Positions 30,013 to 37,964 of a stretch of DNA of 52,593 nucleotides are shown here, piece after piece. The translations under genes were made by a program, and so were the position numbers. The notes below the pieces were generated by a model that saw only the letters and a program-made list of their open reading frames with translations, was not told the origin of the DNA and ran no database searches. Within the stretch, counting starts at the first letter, position 1. The number at the start of each line of letters is the position of its first letter. The DNA comes from Chloracidobacterium sp. CP2_5A (lineage in GTDB: Bacteria > Acidobacteriota > Blastocatellia > Chloracidobacteriales > Chloracidobacteriaceae). The stretch is taken from positions 1 to 52,593 of the forward strand of contig NKPT01000018.1 in assembly GCA_002254845.1 (NCBI GenBank), written 5' to 3'.

Positions 30013-33000
30013 ATGATCTCTCATCGTCATGTCCGGCTGTCATCGTTCCGATGGCTGCTTGCATGGGCGGTCATCCTGTGCTTTGGCGCAGGCGGGACCG
30101 CGTTTGGTCAGGCTTGCCCAGGTCCGCTGGGTCCGCCCCCTGTCTCTGGCTTGGGCGCCGGTCCTGGCAGCGCCGACCGCACGTTTGGGTACGGCTCGGG
30201 CGGAAGCGGAGCGCTCGACGGCTCTATGGAGTCCTTGCTGCTAAAAATCGGCAATATCATCCCGGCGCCGGGCGAAGTTCGAGCGATTGCCGTTCAGCGT
30301 CTCGCCCCCAATGCCAACAAATTCATTGTCGCGGGCAATTTTGCATACCGCGTGCCGGGCACGACTACGGTGTACCGCAATATCATGCGGTTGAACGCCA
30401 ACGGCTCGATAGATACAACTTTCTCGTCGGCTTTTACTTTTAACGCTCCCATCAATGCCTTGGCGGTGGATTCGTTTGACCGCATCATTGTTGGCGGCGA
30501 GTTTACGACGACGCCCCCAACGCGGTCGCGCTTGCTCCGCCTGTCTTCGGGTGGCTTGTTGGATGGGACGTTTAATCCGCCGGTTCCAACGGCGGCGGTC
30601 TTGGCTCTTGAAGTCGACCCCTCCGACAACGTTTACGTTGGTCTCAATGGCGGCACGATCGGTGGCCGCCCCAACTTCACGCGCTTGCAGCCTAACGGGG
30701 TTCTCGATCCGGCGGCCTTTTGGAATCCCGGCGCGGTTATTTCGCCGGCGTTTCCGACTTCGGTGAATGGCCCGGTGCGCGCCATCAAGTATGCCGCCAA
30801 TTTGTTTGGCAGTGGCTCTCCCGGCGTTGTGGTAGGCGGAACCTTCACGCAGGCCACTGGCGGCACGTCGCAGAACGTCGGTAACGTCGCGCTGTTTGAC
30901 TTAACCGGTCAAGTCGATTTCTTCTTTCCGACGACCGGCGGCGGCGCGAATGGGACCATTAATGCGCTCGCTGTGGCCGAGCCACCCCCCGGCGTGGCTT
31001 CGCAGATTTTCGCCGGCGGCGAGTTTTCGCAGTTTAACCTGGTGAGCCGGGCGCGAGTGGCGAAGTTCACAGCCTTTGGTCTTGATCTGACGTTCAATCC
31101 TCCCGCTGGCGCTATCCCCAATCCGGTTCGCGCCTTGGCTTTTACGATTGGCTCTCCATTCACGCAGCCGCCGCCTTTCAATGTGCTTCACGTCGGCGGG
31201 CAGGAAACGGCTACAGCCTTTGCCGATGTAGCTCTAAGTCCCGTCAGCGGCGCTCCTCTCGGTTCATTGGGAACGACTTCGCCGTTCTTCCAGGCGAATC
31301 CCGCCGTGGTGCAGGCGATTGCGGCCAATGCGACGACGGGCGCGCTTTTTGGCGGCGTATTCCTCAATGGGCAAGCCGAGAAGCTCGTCGCGACTTTCAA
31401 TTCGAGCTATAACCCGCCGACGGCAAGTGGCTTGCCCTCGTTCGTCGAGGTTGGCCCGACGCAGTTCTACGCCTCGGCGCTGGCGCCAAATGGCGACTTG
31501 CTGATTGCCGGCGACGTGGGTATTCCAAGCACTGACACAACATCGCCAGATGGCGGACACATCGTTGAGCTTTACCGGATTACGCCTTGCGGCGCGGTGA
31601 GCGTGGTAGCGACGTTCAGAAATATCGGTGGCTACCTGGTTCGCAACGAGCTCGATAATGGAGCTTTTGTGTCGCCTCCGAACAACATCAATGAAACGCC
31701 CGGTCAGGGCTTCCGGCGCGTTGACATCGTCTCGCCTGCTTCAATCCGAGCGCTGGCGGTTGATTCGCAGGGGCGAATTTACGTAGGCGGCCAATTCAAT
31801 CGCGTCGGCGACGTGCCGTGGAACAACTTTGTCCGATTGCTACCCTCCGGGGCTATTGACCCGCTCTTCCAGGTTGGCACCGACGACTTGCCGCCGGTTG
31901 TTGGCACTACGGCCATTCGCCGCGGCGGTCCGACCGGCTTTGGCGCTTCCGGGAGCGGCTTGACGACTGTTGATCCGGAAACGGCGTTCCCGGTTTGGAA
32001 TGGGGCGAGCTTTGTTGATCCGAGGACAGTTTTTGTCAACGTTGGCGAGAAGTACAACCCAGATGCTGGTCGCGTAAACGCCATCGTTCTCGATGAAGAA
32101 AACGGCCATGTTTACATTGGCGGCTTCTTCAAGTGCTACAACGAGGTGCCGCGCGGCGGCATCGCGCGCGTCCTCGCCATCAATGGTCAGCTTGACATGA
32201 CGTTTGGCGACTCATCGTTCTCGTTGCCAGGCGCTGGCGACTACCTTGCGATTCAGCCGGTGACGATTACCCCGTCGCCATTGATCAACGAATCCATTCG
32301 CGCCTACCTGGATCGCGTGTCCGCTTTTGCGCCGCTGCGCTACTTCCGGGCTCGCGTCAACGCGATTTTGCTTGAAGGTCCGCCTGCGGCGCGTCTCGTG
32401 GTCACGGCTGGTCTCTTTGAGCAGGCTAATAACGTGCCGCGCTACAACATCGCTCGGTACTTCGCTAACGGCACGCTCGACACGAGCTTCTCTACTGGCC
32501 CATCGGGCGCTGTCTTCCCGACCGGCACGTCTGGCCTGGGAGCTACATACACAGCGGCGAGTGGCGCGACGGTTGCGAACTCCGGTTCAAACTCCAACGG
32601 TCGCTTCGGCGAGATCTTCGCGCTTGGTCGCCAGACCCTTGGTAACAACGCTGGACGAATTCTCGTTGGCGGCAGCTTTACCCGCATCCTCAACCAAGCT
32701 GGCGCCGCCAGCAATTTGGTTCGCACTGCCTTTACGCGGTTTGAGTCGACTGGTCGCCACGATGGGTCATTCGGCCAGCTGCCTTTCACCGCATCGCCAG
32801 TGGTGCGCGCGATTGCCGTCAAGGCGGATGATCGCCCAATCATCGGCGGCCCGTTCCTCATTGGTCCGCGTGACTTTGGTCCGGGGGATGGAATCGGGTA
32901 TATCAACAACACGACGCGCGCGCGCGTGCATCGCGCCGGCGTCAACGGCACCTTTACGGATGATGTAGATCCGTTCAATGTGCCGCGCTCAACCTGGATG

Positions 33001-34947
33001 ACGGTGCCGCCAGGCACGGGTCAGAACCCGAACGCCCCGCTTGTCTTCCAGCCCGGTCCATACGCGGTGCCAGTCGGGTCGGTCGCCTCGGTTTTCAACA
33101 GTACCACCGGCACGGAGCTTAGCTACTACCCGAACTTGCCGTTCAACACAACGCCGCCGTTTGGCAGCCGATTCCTGGATGGGAGAATGACGGTCAACAC
33201 CATCACGCTTGATCCGGACCGGCGGCGCGCCTACATCGGCGGTCTCTTCAATGCGTTCGAGTCAGTGCGCGCTGACTTCCAAAACGATTCGGCAGCCGGA
33301 CCGAACGGTCTTGGCCTCAGGATTAATTGGCCAGGGGTTGCCGCGCTTCAGAACGGCTCCGGCTGCTCGTATGGGCTTGTCCTCCCAAGCTTCCCGCCAT
33401 TCCAGCCGATTCCGGCTGGCGGAAGCTTCAACCTTGGGGCGATGAACCCAGCCGGCGGTCAGATGACGATTGCCACAATGACCCGCAGCGCGGTGTCGCT
33501 GTGCAATCTCTTGCCGACGATTTCGACGAACTCGCCCTTTGTCACAGTTGTTGGCGCTGTGCCTCGCGCGACGAACCCGGGCTTTGTAGACATCATCGTC
33601 AGCCTTTCGTCGAACGGCACGGGCACGCTTCGCAACGGCTCGGTGACGGTGACGCTGCCGAGCGAAATTGGCGCGCCTACGCCGACGACCTTCACTTTTA
33701 GCCAGGGACCGGCTTCAGGCTGTTCCTTCTCATCCGTGGCTGTGCCGTCCAGCTTCTCAACCGCAGGCGGCTCAGGCCAGTTCCAGATTACGACGTCGCC
33801 AGGATGTAGCTGGACGATCACGGGTCTCCCGACCTGGATTTCAGCCAGCCCGCTGAGCGGCTCGGGTAGCAGCGCAGTGAGCTTCACGGTGGCGTCCAAC
33901 GCTGGCGCGCCGCGCTCGGCGACGGTGAACGTAGCCGGCCAGAGCATTGCCATCACGCAGGATGGCACTTGCACTCTGACGCTCGGCGCGCCAACCGGCA
34001 CGTCGCAGCCGGTCGCTGGCGGCACGGGCAGCTTCGCGGTGACAACCTCCTCGGGCTGCACCTACACGGCGACGAGCAGCGCGCCATGGCTCGTCATCAC
34101 CGCCGGCGCGACTGGCGGGCCGACTGGCACCGTCAGCTTCTCGGTCGGCCGCAACAGCGGCGCGGCGCGACAGGCGACTATTACGGTGACGGCTCAAGGC
34201 GCTCCGTCGCAGTCGGTCACGGTATCGCAGGCGCCTGACAGCGGCGCGGACACCATCGGCATGTTCCGCCCGTCGGATGGCTTCTTCTACCTGCGCAACA
34301 GCAACACGTCAGGCTTTGCCGATAATTCGTTCTTCTATGGTCAGGCGGCTGATGTTCCGCTCTCCGGCGACTGGAACGGCGATGGCATCACGACCATCGG
34401 CGTTTTCCGCGGCGGCCAGTTCTTGCTGCGCAACAGCAACACGGCTGGCGTAGCGGATGTGCCGGCCTTCTCCATCACTGGCACGCAACCGGGTGACATC
34501 CCGCTTGCGGGCGACTGGGATGGCAATGGCACGACGACGGTGGGCTTGTTCCGCGGCGGGGTCTTCCTCCTGCGCAACTCGAACACTTCCGGCCCGGCGG
34601 ACATCACCATCAACTACGGTTTGCCGACCGATACGCCGATTGTTGGCGACTGGGACGGCGATGGCGTAACGACCATCGGCGCCTTCCGCAGCTCGATTGC
34701 GTTCTTCTTCCTGCGCAACTCGAACACGGCGGGTAACGCTGATATCCAAGTCTTCTTCGGTAACGCGGGCGACTCGCCGATTGCAGGCGACTGGGATGGC
34801 AATGGCTCTACAACCATTGGCGTCTTCCGTGCCTCGCCGTTCCCGGCGTTCTTCCTCCGCAACTCCAACACCAGCGGTCCGGCGGACATCACCGCCAATT
34901 ACGGTAACCCGAACGACCGACCGGTGGTTGGCAAGTGGGTTCCGTAG
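30013..34947 (+). CDS. Large secreted protein: delta-60 repeats, BACON-like domains and five C-terminal DWDGDG repeats
   Basis: The product is 1644 aa from ATG 30013 (GAGGAGG upstream). A signal peptide (WLLAWAVILCFGAGGTAFGQA) directs export. Residues about 60-1110 are delta-60-type repeats, with units such as IMRLNANGSIDTTF followed by DRIIVGGEF and RLLRLSSGGLLDGTF. About 1115-1410 are three BACON-like beta domains, the last two opening CSFSSVAVP and CTLTLGAPTG and closing with an SVTVSQ-type strand. The last 230 residues are five repeats of about 46 residues with TxGVFR, FLLRNSNTSG, AD, YG, D-x-P and a GDWDGDG loop that may bind calcium. The same module ends the convergent gene at 35460. 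No LPxTG or PEP-CTERM signal is seen. It is followed by a strong terminator. Role unknown; a surface or matrix protein is likely. Confidence 0.85.
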   Translation: MISHRHVRLSSFRWLLAWAVILCFGAGGTAFGQACPGPLGPPPVSGLGAGPGSADRTFGYGSGGSGALDGSMESLLLKIGNIIPAPGEVRAIAVQRLAPNANKFIVAGNFAYRVPGTTTVYRNIMRLNANGSIDTTFSSAFTFNAPINALAVDSFDRIIVGGEFTTTPPTRSRLLRLSSGGLLDGTFNPPVPTAAVLALEVDPSDNVYVGLNGGTIGGRPNFTRLQPNGVLDPAAFWNPGAVISPAFPTSVNGPVRAIKYAANLFGSGSPGVVVGGTFTQATGGTSQNVGNVALFDLTGQVDFFFPTTGGGANGTINALAVAEPPPGVASQIFAGGEFSQFNLVSRARVAKFTAFGLDLTFNPPAGAIPNPVRALAFTIGSPFTQPPPFNVLHVGGQETATAFADVALSPVSGAPLGSLGTTSPFFQANPAVVQAIAANATTGALFGGVFLNGQAEKLVATFNSSYNPPTASGLPSFVEVGPTQFYASALAPNGDLLIAGDVGIPSTDTTSPDGGHIVELYRITPCGAVSVVATFRNIGGYLVRNELDNGAFVSPPNNINETPGQGFRRVDIVSPASIRALAVDSQGRIYVGGQFNRVGDVPWNNFVRLLPSGAIDPLFQVGTDDLPPVVGTTAIRRGGPTGFGASGSGLTTVDPETAFPVWNGASFVDPRTVFVNVGEKYNPDAGRVNAIVLDEENGHVYIGGFFKCYNEVPRGGIARVLAINGQLDMTFGDSSFSLPGAGDYLAIQPVTITPSPLINESIRAYLDRVSAFAPLRYFRARVNAILLEGPPAARLVVTAGLFEQANNVPRYNIARYFANGTLDTSFSTGPSGAVFPTGTSGLGATYTAASGATVANSGSNSNGRFGEIFALGRQTLGNNAGRILVGGSFTRILNQAGAASNLVRTAFTRFESTGRHDGSFGQLPFTASPVVRAIAVKADDRPIIGGPFLIGPRDFGPGDGIGYINNTTRARVHRAGVNGTFTDDVDPFNVPRSTWMTVPPGTGQNPNAPLVFQPGPYAVPVGSVASVFNSTTGTELSYYPNLPFNTTPPFGSRFLDGRMTVNTITLDPDRRRAYIGGLFNAFESVRADFQNDSAAGPNGLGLRINWPGVAALQNGSGCSYGLVLPSFPPFQPIPAGGSFNLGAMNPAGGQMTIATMTRSAVSLCNLLPTISTNSPFVTVVGAVPRATNPGFVDIIVSLSSNGTGTLRNGSVTVTLPSEIGAPTPTTFTFSQGPASGCSFSSVAVPSSFSTAGGSGQFQITTSPGCSWTITGLPTWISASPLSGSGSSAVSFTVASNAGAPRSATVNVAGQSIAITQDGTCTLTLGAPTGTSQPVAGGTGSFAVTTSSGCTYTATSSAPWLVITAGATGGPTGTVSFSVGRNSGAARQATITVTAQGAPSQSVTVSQAPDSGADTIGMFRPSDGFFYLRNSNTSGFADNSFFYGQAADVPLSGDWNGDGITTIGVFRGGQFLLRNSNTAGVADVPAFSITGTQPGDIPLAGDWDGNGTTTVGLFRGGVFLLRNSNTSGPADITINYGLPTDTPIVGDWDGDGVTTIGAFRSSIAFFFLRNSNTAGNADIQVFFGNAGDSPIAGDWDGNGSTTIGVFRASPFPAFFLRNSNTSGPADITANYGNPNDRPVVGKWVP
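34256..34947 (+). repeat. Coding repeat: five units of about 46 codons
   Basis: This segment encodes the five C-terminal repeats of the 1644-aa protein. Each contains FR, LRNSNT(S/A)G, AD and GDW(D/N)G(D/N)G, except that the last ends GKWVP. Repeats are similar in protein but diverged in DNA, so they are old, not a recent slippage array. Confidence 0.8.
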
Positions 34948-35015
34948 TCAGCCTTTCCTAAGCCACGGGCAGTGGCGGTCAGCCGCCGTCGCTGCCTCGC
35001 TGGCAGGCATCTTTC

Positions 35016-35059
35016 CCGCCGGAGCGTTCCTTGGAACGCCTCCGGCGGTTTTATTTTTT
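35016..35059 (+). terminator. Intrinsic terminator of the 1644-aa gene
   Basis: CCGCCGGAGCGTTCC (35016-35030) pairs with GGAACGCCTCCGGCGG (35033-35048) with a single bulged base. It is followed by TTTTATTTTTTG (35049-35060). It lies about 70 bp past the stop codon and has the full Rho-independent form. Confidence 0.9.
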
Positions 35060-35162
35060 GGCCCGCCGATTCGGTTTGACTTATTGATTCCGGGAGAGAT
35101 GCCGCGAATGTCTCCGCCAGCGGGCTTCCCGCAACAGCGTCGCGCAAGCCGCAGACCGCCAA

Positions 35163-35339
35163 ATGGCGGGCTCGCCTGAAGCGAAAAAGGCGAAGCCCGA
35201 AGGGGCGCAGGGGGTTGGGCTTGGCTCTGGGCGTCTGAATGTAGCGGCGTATTTTGAGGTTACTGAGGATATGGCGGCCCTTGCGAAGCGCTACGCCAGC
35301 GCGAATATCGCCGCGAGCGGGAAGCGAGCGGACTTTTGA
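35163..35339 (+). CDS. Possible 58-aa small ORF
   Basis: ATG 35163 opens 58 codons ending in TGA at 35337. The translation starts MAGSPEAKKAKPEGAQG and ends with a helical basic stretch (LAKRYASANIAASGKRADF). Codon choice is similar to neighbouring genes. No clear ribosome site or promoter precedes it, and it lies between two terminators. It may be chance. Confidence 0.18.
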   Translation: MAGSPEAKKAKPEGAQGVGLGSGRLNVAAYFEVTEDMAALAKRYASANIAASGKRADF

Positions 35340-35390
35340 GCGCGACTTCTTGCTGAATATCGCCCATTCCGTTAGGACTTCTTTCGGTTG

Positions 35391-35427
35391 AAAAAGAAGC
35401 GGGCGGGAGCCGCAGCTCCCGCCCGCT
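35391..35427 (-). terminator. Intrinsic terminator of the 834-aa gene
   Basis: A 13-bp perfect stem (AGCGGGCGGGAGC at 35398-35410 with GCTCCCGCCCGCT at 35415-35427, loop CGCA) is followed on the minus strand by TTCTTTTT. It lies 33 bp past the stop of the minus-strand gene. Confidence 0.9.
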
Positions 35428-35459
35428 GGATGGGCGATTGCCCTGAAGGGGCGCGCAAA

Positions 35460-36150
35460 TCAGCGAAACTCGCCGTTCCAATTGCCTACGATGGGGCGGT
35501 CGCCAGCGCTTCCAAAGTTGATGGAAATATCTGGCGTTCCGCTGGAGTTGGCGTTGCGCAGCAGAAACTGACCGTTGCGGAAGACGCCAACCGAATCAAA
35601 GCCCTTGCCCGTCCAATCGCCTGCCACCGGGCGGTCGCCTGCCTGACCAAAGGCGAACGAGGCGTCCGGCGCTCCGCTCGCGTTGTTGTTGCGGAGCAAA
35701 AATATCCCGTCGCGGAAGACGCCAACGCTGGTTTTTCCGTCGCCGTTCCAGTCGCCCGCAATGGGCAGATCAGAGGCTTGCCCAAAGGCCACAGCGCGGT
35801 CAGCGAAGCCAGCAGTGTTGCTGTCCTTCAAGAAAAAGACGCCGTTACGGAACACGCCGACGGAGTCAAAGCCCTTGCCCGTCCAATCGCCCGCCAGCGG
35901 AATATCGCCAGGCGCGCCATAGTTGAAGGCGGTGTCGGCAAAGCCGGCGGTGTTGGCGTTCTTGAGGAAGAATTGCGCGGTAGCGGGGCGAAAGACGCCT
36001 AGCGTATCCACGCCGTCGCCATCCCAGTCGCCGACGATGGGAATATCGCCTGGCAGCCCGTAGGCGAAGACGGCGTCGGCCATGCCGGTCGAATTGGCAT
36101 GGCGCGTGAACGCCGTCGCCGCCGAGCTATAGACGCCGATCTTGGTCACA
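35460..36150 (-). repeat. Coding repeat: five units of about 46 codons
   Basis: This segment encodes the five C-terminal repeats of the 834-aa protein, with GVFR, (L/K)(R/K)(N/D)(A/S/N)N and GDW(D/T/N)G(D/K)G in each. Units 3 and 5 are the most alike (both open DSVGVFRNG), which suggests local duplication within the tail. Confidence 0.8.
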
Positions 36151-37964
36151 TCCGTCACGAGGCGGCTGGCCAGCGAGCCGCCGGAGAGACCGGTGACGCC
36201 GGCCGAGGAAACCTCCGCCAGTTGGGTGGCGCGTCCAGTGACCAGATCGAGGCTAAAAATCTGGCTGACGCCGCCCGAGCCGGCGAAAAGCAGTGCGCGC
36301 CCGCCGCGGACGGGCGCATTGCTGGTCTGCGCGCGAACGTTAGGCGAGATGTCAAAGCCGTTGACCGTGTCAATCGACAGCGGCGCGCCGTTGAGCGTGA
36401 TGTTGGCGACAAAGATTTGCGTGCCGGAGTTGGGCGGGCTCTGAATGTAGAGCGCGCGTCCAGCGGAGTCTATCGTGTACTGCGTTGTCGCAGTGGCCCC
36501 GCCAAAGGCGTTGGTATAGGCCGTCGCCGCCACGCCCGTTAAACCCATCGGCAACCCGTTGATGTTGCCATCCGTCTGGGTGCCGGGCGCGTTCGCGTTT
36601 CCATCCAGCGGCTGTCCGTCGTTGGGATTGATGCGGAAATTGAGACCGCTGGCCGTTGTCACGCGCAAGCGGTCAACGACCGGATTGAAATCCAGTCCGT
36701 AGCCTCCGGGCGGGAGCGTCACTTGCGCTGCCCCGTCAGCCTGCACATAGGCGATGGCGGAAGGCGCAAGCGGGCTGCAGGCGCCGATTTTGGGGTCAAC
36801 CAAATACAGCGTGCCGTTGGACGCGAAAACGTCAATCCCCAGGCCGTAGAACTGCCCCGTCGCCGGACGGAAGTCAACGCCGACGAGTCGCTCATTGGCG
36901 GCAACGCCAGTGACGGCGACCTCAGTCGTGGCGAGCGCGCCGAGACTGATCTGCACAAGGCGCGTTCCATTTTGGTTGAGCGCGACGCCGAACTCGCCGC
37001 CAACCGGGCGCGTTTGGATGGCGAGACCCTGCACGGGCGTCGCGCCGTCGCCGACCGGGCCGACAAGTTGCGCCGCGCCGGTGGAAAGTTCTATCGCATA
37101 GAGTCCGTTGACGTTGTTGACTTGCAAGACGGCAAAGGCCGCGCCAGACGCGACCGGCGCGCCCGACGATGGAGCATTGACGCCATCCGCGACATCGAAG
37201 CCGCCAACCTGCGTGAAGTTGAGCGGGTTGCCGCCGGCTGTCACCGGCAAGCCATTGACTTGCGTCCCGTTGTTGGGCGGATTTTGGACAAAGAGTCGTC
37301 GGCTGCCAGCATCCAGCGTGTACTGCGTGGTGATGGCGGCGAGGGCGTTGTTATTGGTGTAGAGCGTGGAATCCACGCGCGTCGTGCCGCCGCTGATGTT
37401 GGCGTCCGGCTGGACGCCCGGGGCGCTGGCGTTGCCGTCAATGAGCAACCCCGTATTGGGGTTCATGCGGAAGTTGAGTCCGGCGCTCGTCACAATGCGC
37501 AGGCGGTCAACCGCCGGATTGAAATCGATCCCGACCGTCCCCGTCACTGGGATGGGCGTCGTCCCGTCGGCGGCGACCAGCCCCTGGGCGGTGGCCGTGA
37601 GCGGCGTGGCCGTTCCGTTCTGATGGCTAATGCAGTAGAGCCGCACCTGCCCCATGGCATTGCGAGCCAGTCCATACATCAGCCCGTTCATTGGGCGAAA
37701 ATCGATGTCAACCAGCGTTTCGCCGGCGACGACGCCGGTCAGGGCGATGGGCAGGCTGGGATTGGATGGGTTTTCCAGGCTGTGCGGAATCAGGCGGTTG
37801 TTGGAGAGGGCGAAGACGCCCTGAAGTCCGGTGACGTTGAAGCTGGCGGCCGAGACCGTTGATCTGGCGGGGCTTGCTCCCTCGATGATAAAGCGCGGCG
37901 CGAGCGCCCAACCCAGCAGCGCAAGCGCGCCAACTGCGAGAAACAATTTGGAATTCCAACGCAT
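35460..37964 (-). CDS. Secreted protein with two DUF4394 domains and five C-terminal DWDGDG repeats
   Basis: The product is 834 aa, starting MRWNSKLFLAVGALALLGWALA (signal peptide) with CAGGAGATAG just upstream. Two tandem DUF4394-like domains fill about residues 40-600: the pair VGIDFNPAVDRLRIVTSAG and GLDFNPVVDRLRVTTASG show an internal duplication. The last 230 residues (about 605-834) are five repeats of about 46 residues with GVFR, FFLKNANTAG, AD, YG, GD-x-P and GDWxGxG. This tail matches that of the convergent 1644-aa protein, although the remaining domains differ. No sorting signal is seen. It has its own terminator. It is probably extracellular or surface-bound; the function of DUF4394 is not established to my knowledge. 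Confidence 0.85.
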   Translation of the reverse strand: MRWNSKLFLAVGALALLGWALAPRFIIEGASPARSTVSAASFNVTGLQGVFALSNNRLIPHSLENPSNPSLPIALTGVVAGETLVDIDFRPMNGLMYGLARNAMGQVRLYCISHQNGTATPLTATAQGLVAADGTTPIPVTGTVGIDFNPAVDRLRIVTSAGLNFRMNPNTGLLIDGNASAPGVQPDANISGGTTRVDSTLYTNNNALAAITTQYTLDAGSRRLFVQNPPNNGTQVNGLPVTAGGNPLNFTQVGGFDVADGVNAPSSGAPVASGAAFAVLQVNNVNGLYAIELSTGAAQLVGPVGDGATPVQGLAIQTRPVGGEFGVALNQNGTRLVQISLGALATTEVAVTGVAANERLVGVDFRPATGQFYGLGIDVFASNGTLYLVDPKIGACSPLAPSAIAYVQADGAAQVTLPPGGYGLDFNPVVDRLRVTTASGLNFRINPNDGQPLDGNANAPGTQTDGNINGLPMGLTGVAATAYTNAFGGATATTQYTIDSAGRALYIQSPPNSGTQIFVANITLNGAPLSIDTVNGFDISPNVRAQTSNAPVRGGRALLFAGSGGVSQIFSLDLVTGRATQLAEVSSAGVTGLSGGSLASRLVTDVTKIGVYSSAATAFTRHANSTGMADAVFAYGLPGDIPIVGDWDGDGVDTLGVFRPATAQFFLKNANTAGFADTAFNYGAPGDIPLAGDWTGKGFDSVGVFRNGVFFLKDSNTAGFADRAVAFGQASDLPIAGDWNGDGKTSVGVFRDGIFLLRNNNASGAPDASFAFGQAGDRPVAGDWTGKGFDSVGVFRNGQFLLRNANSSGTPDISINFGSAGDRPIVGNWNGEFR

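What the first reader, a model, noticed from the sequence alone, without database searches (positions are those of the whole stretch)
34256..36150. Two convergent secreted proteins share the same five-fold C-terminal repeat tail
The 1644-aa and 834-aa products have unrelated N-terminal parts (delta-60/BACON and DUF4394 pairs) but both end in exactly five units of about 46 residues built on GVFR, LRNSNTSG, AD, YG and GDWDGDG. The genes face each other, both have signal peptides, and each has its own strong terminator. A shared tail on different bodies suggests a common sorting, surface-attachment or calcium-binding module, or a cargo tag for a secretion system. The GDWDGDG loop resembles FG-GAP/VCBS-type calcium loops.
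Basis: partly seen in the sequence, partly recalled or inferred. Interest (0 to 1): 0.62.

Follow-up and report, generated by a model that had tools for sequence, protein, structure and literature searches.

The report
Swappable five-bladed propeller on secreted proteins
Two neighbouring secreted proteins with unrelated bodies end in the same ring-shaped five-bladed domain, which turns out to be an unnamed module shared by very many kinds of secreted bacterial and archaeal proteins, most likely to hold them onto surface sugars.

Summary
Residues 1409-1644 of the + strand protein and 603-834 of the - strand protein are five repeats of 45-48 aa each, 52% identical, while the bodies are unrelated. 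The tail matches no Pfam or NCBIfam family at cut-off. AlphaFold2 models of both tails are confident (pLDDT 97) five-bladed beta-propellers; the strand order B-C-D-A, ending just after strand A, fits a 'velcro' ring closure. Nearest solved structures: the five-bladed tachylectin-type propeller (fold) and UmbA4, a surface-glycan-binding propeller lectin of Streptomyces (sequence profile, E 4e-5). The tail is on nine proteins of this genome and in at least eight phyla including archaea; every complete copy checked has five units (152/152), mostly C-terminal and on exported enzymes. Near-identical tails sit on unrelated bodies, so it is a shuffled module. It belongs to the VCBS/FG-GAP propeller supercluster but is a five-bladed variant without the canonical ninth-position Asp. 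Most likely function, by homology only: an extracellular glycan-binding attachment domain. A secretion tag is unlikely, since monoderm bacteria and archaea carry it. The facing gene pair is accidental: the orthologues lie about 350 kb apart in a related species.

The parts
30013..34947 (+). 1644-aa secreted protein: signal peptide, delta-60/DUF5122 propeller repeats, two BACON domains, five-unit tail
34237..34944 (+). tail 1 (residues 1409-1644), predicted five-bladed propeller
34249..34389 (+). tail 1 unit 1 (47 aa)
34390..34533 (+). tail 1 unit 2 (48 aa)
34534..34668 (+). tail 1 unit 3 (45 aa)
34669..34809 (+). tail 1 unit 4 (47 aa)
34810..34944 (+). tail 1 unit 5 (45 aa), ends after strand A (PVVGKWVP), closing the ring
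35016..35059 (+). intrinsic terminator of the + gene (9-bp outer stem, then TTTTATTTTTT)
35398..35427 (-). intrinsic terminator of the - gene (13-bp perfect stem, 4-nt loop, T-rich tail)
35460..37964 (-). 834-aa secreted protein: signal peptide, two DUF4394 domains, five-unit tail
35463..36158 (-). tail 2 (residues 603-834), predicted five-bladed propeller; units at 36146-36009, 36008-35868, 35867-35733, 35732-35598, 35597-35463

Best explanation
The tail is one compact domain: a closed five-bladed beta-propeller of the VCBS/FG-GAP supercluster. Each 46-residue unit gives strands B (TIGVFR), C (FxLRN), D (ADxxFxYG) and A (PxxGDW); the GDWDGDG stretch is loop AB. The sequence begins with B and ends with A, so the last strand completes the first blade and closes the ring (shown: sequence, unit counts, confident models; the closure itself is inferred). 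Evolution uses it as an interchangeable domain, mostly C-terminal, on exported proteases, phosphatases, peptidoglycan-lytic enzymes and large propeller proteins (shown). Its likely job is to bind a surface or matrix glycan (own envelope, extracellular polysaccharide or substrate) and so hold the attached protein at the cell surface or on its substrate (inferred from homology to UmbA4 and PVL lectins; no ligand tested). The DGDG loops probably stabilise the blades, perhaps with a metal ion (inferred).
For: Five units in all complete copies: 149/158 frames by profile, three more by eye, the other six being four cut ends, one frameshifted gene and one deleted gene; 20/20 in a further set of Acidobacteriota loci. 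AF2 pLDDT 97.6 and 97.3, pTM 0.92 for both; tail 2 shows 20 strands. Best structural match to both: 5c2m, five-bladed tachylectin type, Z 13.2 over 200-203 residues. Foldseek top hits: GlcNAc-binding fungal lectins of the PVL type. Profile versus PDB: UmbA4 9oee E 4.4e-5, the only significant hit, then integrin alpha-V at 0.08; UmbA4 also Z 11.4 over 223 residues. UmbA4's propeller binds wall teichuronic acid, and single changes in its sugar sites impair targeting (PMC13274773). Bodies: 104 body segments match about 100 Pfam families (62 and 51 in two batches), the commonest (S8 protease) only eight times. Signal-like N termini 67/95 versus 59/245 controls. Same tail on different bodies: 99% identical in Streptomyces L090, 89% in Nonomuraea L043, 87% over 416 aa in the G006 subtilase versus reprolysin.
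Against: No ligand is known for any close relative. The GW motif of loop DA', which helps form the sugar pocket in tachylectin-2 and PVL (PMC8023676), is absent from the window tails (0/10) and its genus (0/90), though present in 12/91 units of other Acidobacteriota. UmbA4 has six blades, and its profile match is low-scoring with high composition bias. Propellers of this supercluster also serve protein-protein contacts. The signal-peptide rule is home-made.
Confidence: 0.6

Rival explanations
1. The tail is a C-terminal sorting signal read by a dedicated secretion system (like the T9SS C-terminal domain or a T2SS cargo feature).
For: Usually C-terminal (within 20 aa of the end in 116/158 frames) and on signal-peptide proteins; the genome has secretins.
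Against: Present in monoderm actinobacteria and in archaea, which share no outer-membrane secretion system; N-terminal or internal in a minority; no T9SS tail in the genome; the conservation is that of a whole folded domain.
Confidence: 0.1
2. A stabilising or protein-protein scaffold: the propeller binds another envelope protein (or itself) rather than a sugar, perhaps with calcium.
For: Loop AB keeps Asp/Asn at positions 1, 3 and 5 in 75-91% of units; integrin alpha-V is the second profile hit, though not significant; no GW sugar-pocket motif in the window.
Against: The ninth-position Asp of the canonical FG-GAP calcium loop is Thr/Ser; a conserved protein partner in archaea, actinobacteria and acidobacteria alike is hard to picture.
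Confidence: 0.25
3. The two window genes are a functional pair joined by their tails.
For: They face each other with 512 bp between them.
Against: In G001 the orthologues lie about 350 kb apart on one strand, the DUF4394 gene keeping its neighbours on that side; seven other tail genes of this genome lie on other contigs.
Confidence: 0.03

Closest known systems
UmbA lectin propellers of Streptomyces umbrella particles (UmbA4, PDB 9oee; 5-, 6- and 7-bladed families; PMC13274773)
   Same: Secreted proteins with a C-terminal propeller bearing metal-type loops, exchanged between relatives; best PDB profile hit; one tail protein of this genome also has a trypsin-like body.
   Different: UmbA4 has six blades and GDFNGDGRDD-type loops; window bodies are not trypsin-like; other umbrella particle parts were not looked for. 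Whether the tail equals one of the 12 five-bladed UmbA families could not be checked.
VCBS/FG-GAP propellers (PF13517, PF01839; PMC8023676, PMC9218822)
   Same: DxDxDG loop AB, blade length, secreted prokaryotic proteins, recent blade amplification; weak Pfam hits in 64 of 80 tails.
   Different: Always five blades, where highly repetitive VCBS-like propellers vary with a median of six and PVL/integrin have seven; loop position 9 is Thr/Ser; window tails are below the Pfam cut-off.
Tachylectin-2 (five-bladed GlcNAc lectin; 1TL2, 5c2m; PMC4735018)
   Same: Five blades of about 47 residues, 236-237 residues in all; best structural match.
   Different: About 5% identity; tachylectin-like propellers lack DxDxDG and have GW in loop DA', the reverse of the window tails.
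Psathyrella velutina lectin type (2bwr, 4tqj)
   Same: Top Foldseek hits; DxDxDG loops.
   Different: Seven blades; eukaryotic; GW sugar pocket.

Membership tests
VCBS supercluster of beta-propellers | propeller fold of four-stranded blades | tested here: met
   predicted models
VCBS supercluster of beta-propellers | DxDxDG-type loop AB | tested here: met
   6 of 8 loops in the window, about 90% in relatives outside the genus
PF13517 FG-GAP_3 | Pfam gathering score of 26.9 bits | tested here: not met
   tail 1 14.0 bits, tail 2 no hit; some relatives reach E 2.7e-8
Canonical FG-GAP calcium loop | Asp at position 9 (DxDxDGxxD) | tested here: not met
   Thr/Ser in all eight window loops and in most relatives
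Tachylectin-2 family | five blades of about 47 residues | tested here: met
Tachylectin-2 family | GW motif in loop DA' and no DxDxDG | tested here: not met
   0/10 GW in the window; DxDxDG present
UmbA proteins | N-terminal trypsin-like domain | tested here: not met
   window bodies are delta-60/BACON and DUF4394
UmbA proteins | C-terminal glycan-binding propeller | not testable with these tools
   homology E 4.4e-5; binding needs an experiment
T9SS cargo | Por_Secre_tail type C-terminal domain | tested here: not met
   no TIGR04183 match in the genome nor in the two proteins

The most novel reading that the evidence does not exclude
An unnamed, strictly five-bladed VCBS propeller is a cross-domain 'address' module: archaea, monoderm and diderm bacteria fit it onto unrelated exported enzymes to hold them on envelope or matrix glycans, and copies are exchanged between bodies by recombination.
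Probability: 0.35. Interest if true: 0.65.

Novelty: new variant of a known kind. Interest (0 to 1): 0.5.

Why it matters
The domain is carried by many secreted enzymes of soil, hot-spring and animal-associated microbes and no Pfam or NCBIfam model names it at cut-off in the window. Naming it would label many 'hypothetical' protein ends, and if it is a lectin it says where these proteases, phosphatases and lytic enzymes work. The fixed count of five inside a supercluster known for variable blade number is also a clean case for asking how blade number is fixed.

Tried and rejected
Secretion tag (monoderm and archaeal hosts). Functional convergent pair (orthologues far apart). Chance or low-complexity similarity. 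The first profile count of 97/107 five-unit proteins had nine 'four' and one 'three'; a better profile and reading by eye showed five in all complete ones. A PDB search with the seven-row own-genome profile found nothing; the 80-row profile found UmbA4. No tails in phage records and only distant ones on three plasmids, so no sign of carriage by mobile elements. Blades keep only weak position identity between proteins (55.7% same index versus 50.6% different index in the genus). Literature: no paper found by the motif, by five-bladed FG-GAP in bacteria or for Chloracidobacterium.

Full report
Observation. The two convergent genes code for 1644 and 834 aa proteins. Their last 236 and 232 residues are five repeats of 45-48 aa, 52% identical to each other with E 6e-73, while the bodies share nothing. 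Shuffled units never exceed 13% identity against 53% observed. Bodies carry DUF5122/delta-60 and BACON, or DUF4394. Each gene has a strong terminator.

What it is. Neither Pfam nor NCBIfam names the tail; FG-GAP_3 gives 14 bits against a cut-off of 26.9 for tail 1. Across 80 relatives FG-GAP_3 is the commonest weak hit (64 members, best 2.7e-8). AlphaFold2 on alignments of relatives gives pLDDT 97.6 and 97.3 and pTM 0.92 for the two tails, with about four strands per unit. The closest fold for both is the five-bladed tachylectin-type propeller 5c2m (Z 13.2); Foldseek puts PVL-type GlcNAc lectins first. A profile of 80 tails finds one significant PDB sequence, UmbA4 (9oee, E 4.4e-5), with integrin alpha-V next at 0.08. 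PVL, integrins, tachylectins and VCBS propellers form one supercluster in PMC8023676; UmbA4 is not discussed there, and I place it there by its loops. The strand order B-C-D-A and the end of the protein just after strand A fit a velcro closure, leaving four DGDG loops for five blades.

Always five. In the window's genome there are nine tail genes on eight contigs; seven have a complete tail of five units, one is cut by a contig end, one has a deletion. In the genus, 7 of 7 genomes have 4-11 matches. Over all loci fetched, 149 of 158 frames have five units, three further ones are five by eye, and the other six are cut or damaged; a few loci are counted twice because two searches reached the same contig. 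A second Blastocatellia genome gave only five-unit, C-terminal tails in the 17 loci read. The query was a five-unit tail, which can miss shorter arrays, but it would have found longer ones and none appeared.

Module on many bodies. In this genome the tails sit on a trypsin-like/PPC protein, a beta-lactamase-fold enzyme, a Kelch protein, a PA-domain metalloprotease, a TIG-type Ig-like protein with downstream FG-GAP repeats, a reprolysin (deleted copy) and the two window proteins. Elsewhere 104 body segments match about 100 Pfam families: subtilases, amidases, SpoIID, L,D-transpeptidases, transglycosylases, phosphatases, sulfatase, GH6, GH44, sialidase-like repeats and others. 71% have a signal-like N terminus against 24% of control ORFs. 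Hosts span Acidobacteriota, Actinomycetota, Chloroflexota, Pseudomonadota, Myxococcota, Planctomycetota, Bacillota and methanogen-related archaea; many are metagenome bins, but isolates such as Georgenia, Bifidobacterium, Actinotignum, Streptomyces and Thiobaca are among them. In the genus, tails group by body, so most attachments are old (75-97% between orthologues, 55% mean between paralogues), but subtilase, reprolysin and PA-protease share one tail type with up to 97% identity, and neighbouring genes in Streptomyces and Nonomuraea share 99% and 89% identical tails on unrelated bodies. So the module is copied between genes.

How it works. The best-supported reading is an extracellular binding domain, probably for glycans. 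This rests on homology with UmbA4, whose propeller binds wall teichuronic acid and steers its particle, on the PVL and tachylectin folds, and on the many cell-wall and polysaccharide-active bodies. Against it: the GW sugar-pocket motif is missing in the window and its genus, though seen in some units of other Acidobacteriota. The DGDG loops keep Asp/Asn at 1, 3 and 5 but have Thr/Ser at 9, so calcium is possible but unproven. A secretion tag is unlikely because hosts without an outer membrane carry it.

The gene pair. In G001, whose replicon sizes match Chloracidobacterium thermophilum B (my knowledge), the delta-60 gene and the DUF4394 gene lie about 350 kb apart on one strand, each with its own neighbours. 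The facing arrangement here is a rearrangement without sign of function.

Verdict. Real, widespread and unnamed in the libraries searched; a new five-bladed variant within a known supercluster. Function inferred, not shown.

Noticed in passing
L142 (own genome contig C288, 55500-58200), compared with L141: A reprolysin gene has lost about 1.45 kb in frame between the DADGD-coding part of an Ig-like domain and the DGDG-coding part of its last tail unit, leaving one unit; the relative's gene has five units. It could be recombination at short homology or an assembly error.
   Followed up: partly
L103, L104 (G001): Tandem duplicate genes with TIG-like domains, the five-unit tail and a downstream FG-GAP propeller, so the module can be internal.
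   Followed up: partly
L111 (G001): A tail gene split over two frames, apparently a pseudogene.
   Followed up: no
L090:3715-6669: Neighbouring Streptomyces genes for an NlpC/P60-like enzyme and a transglycosylase carry 99% identical tails.
   Followed up: partly
L019 (own genome contig C381): A second tail of the PA-protease type at a contig end, so this genome has a further, incomplete tail gene.
   Followed up: no
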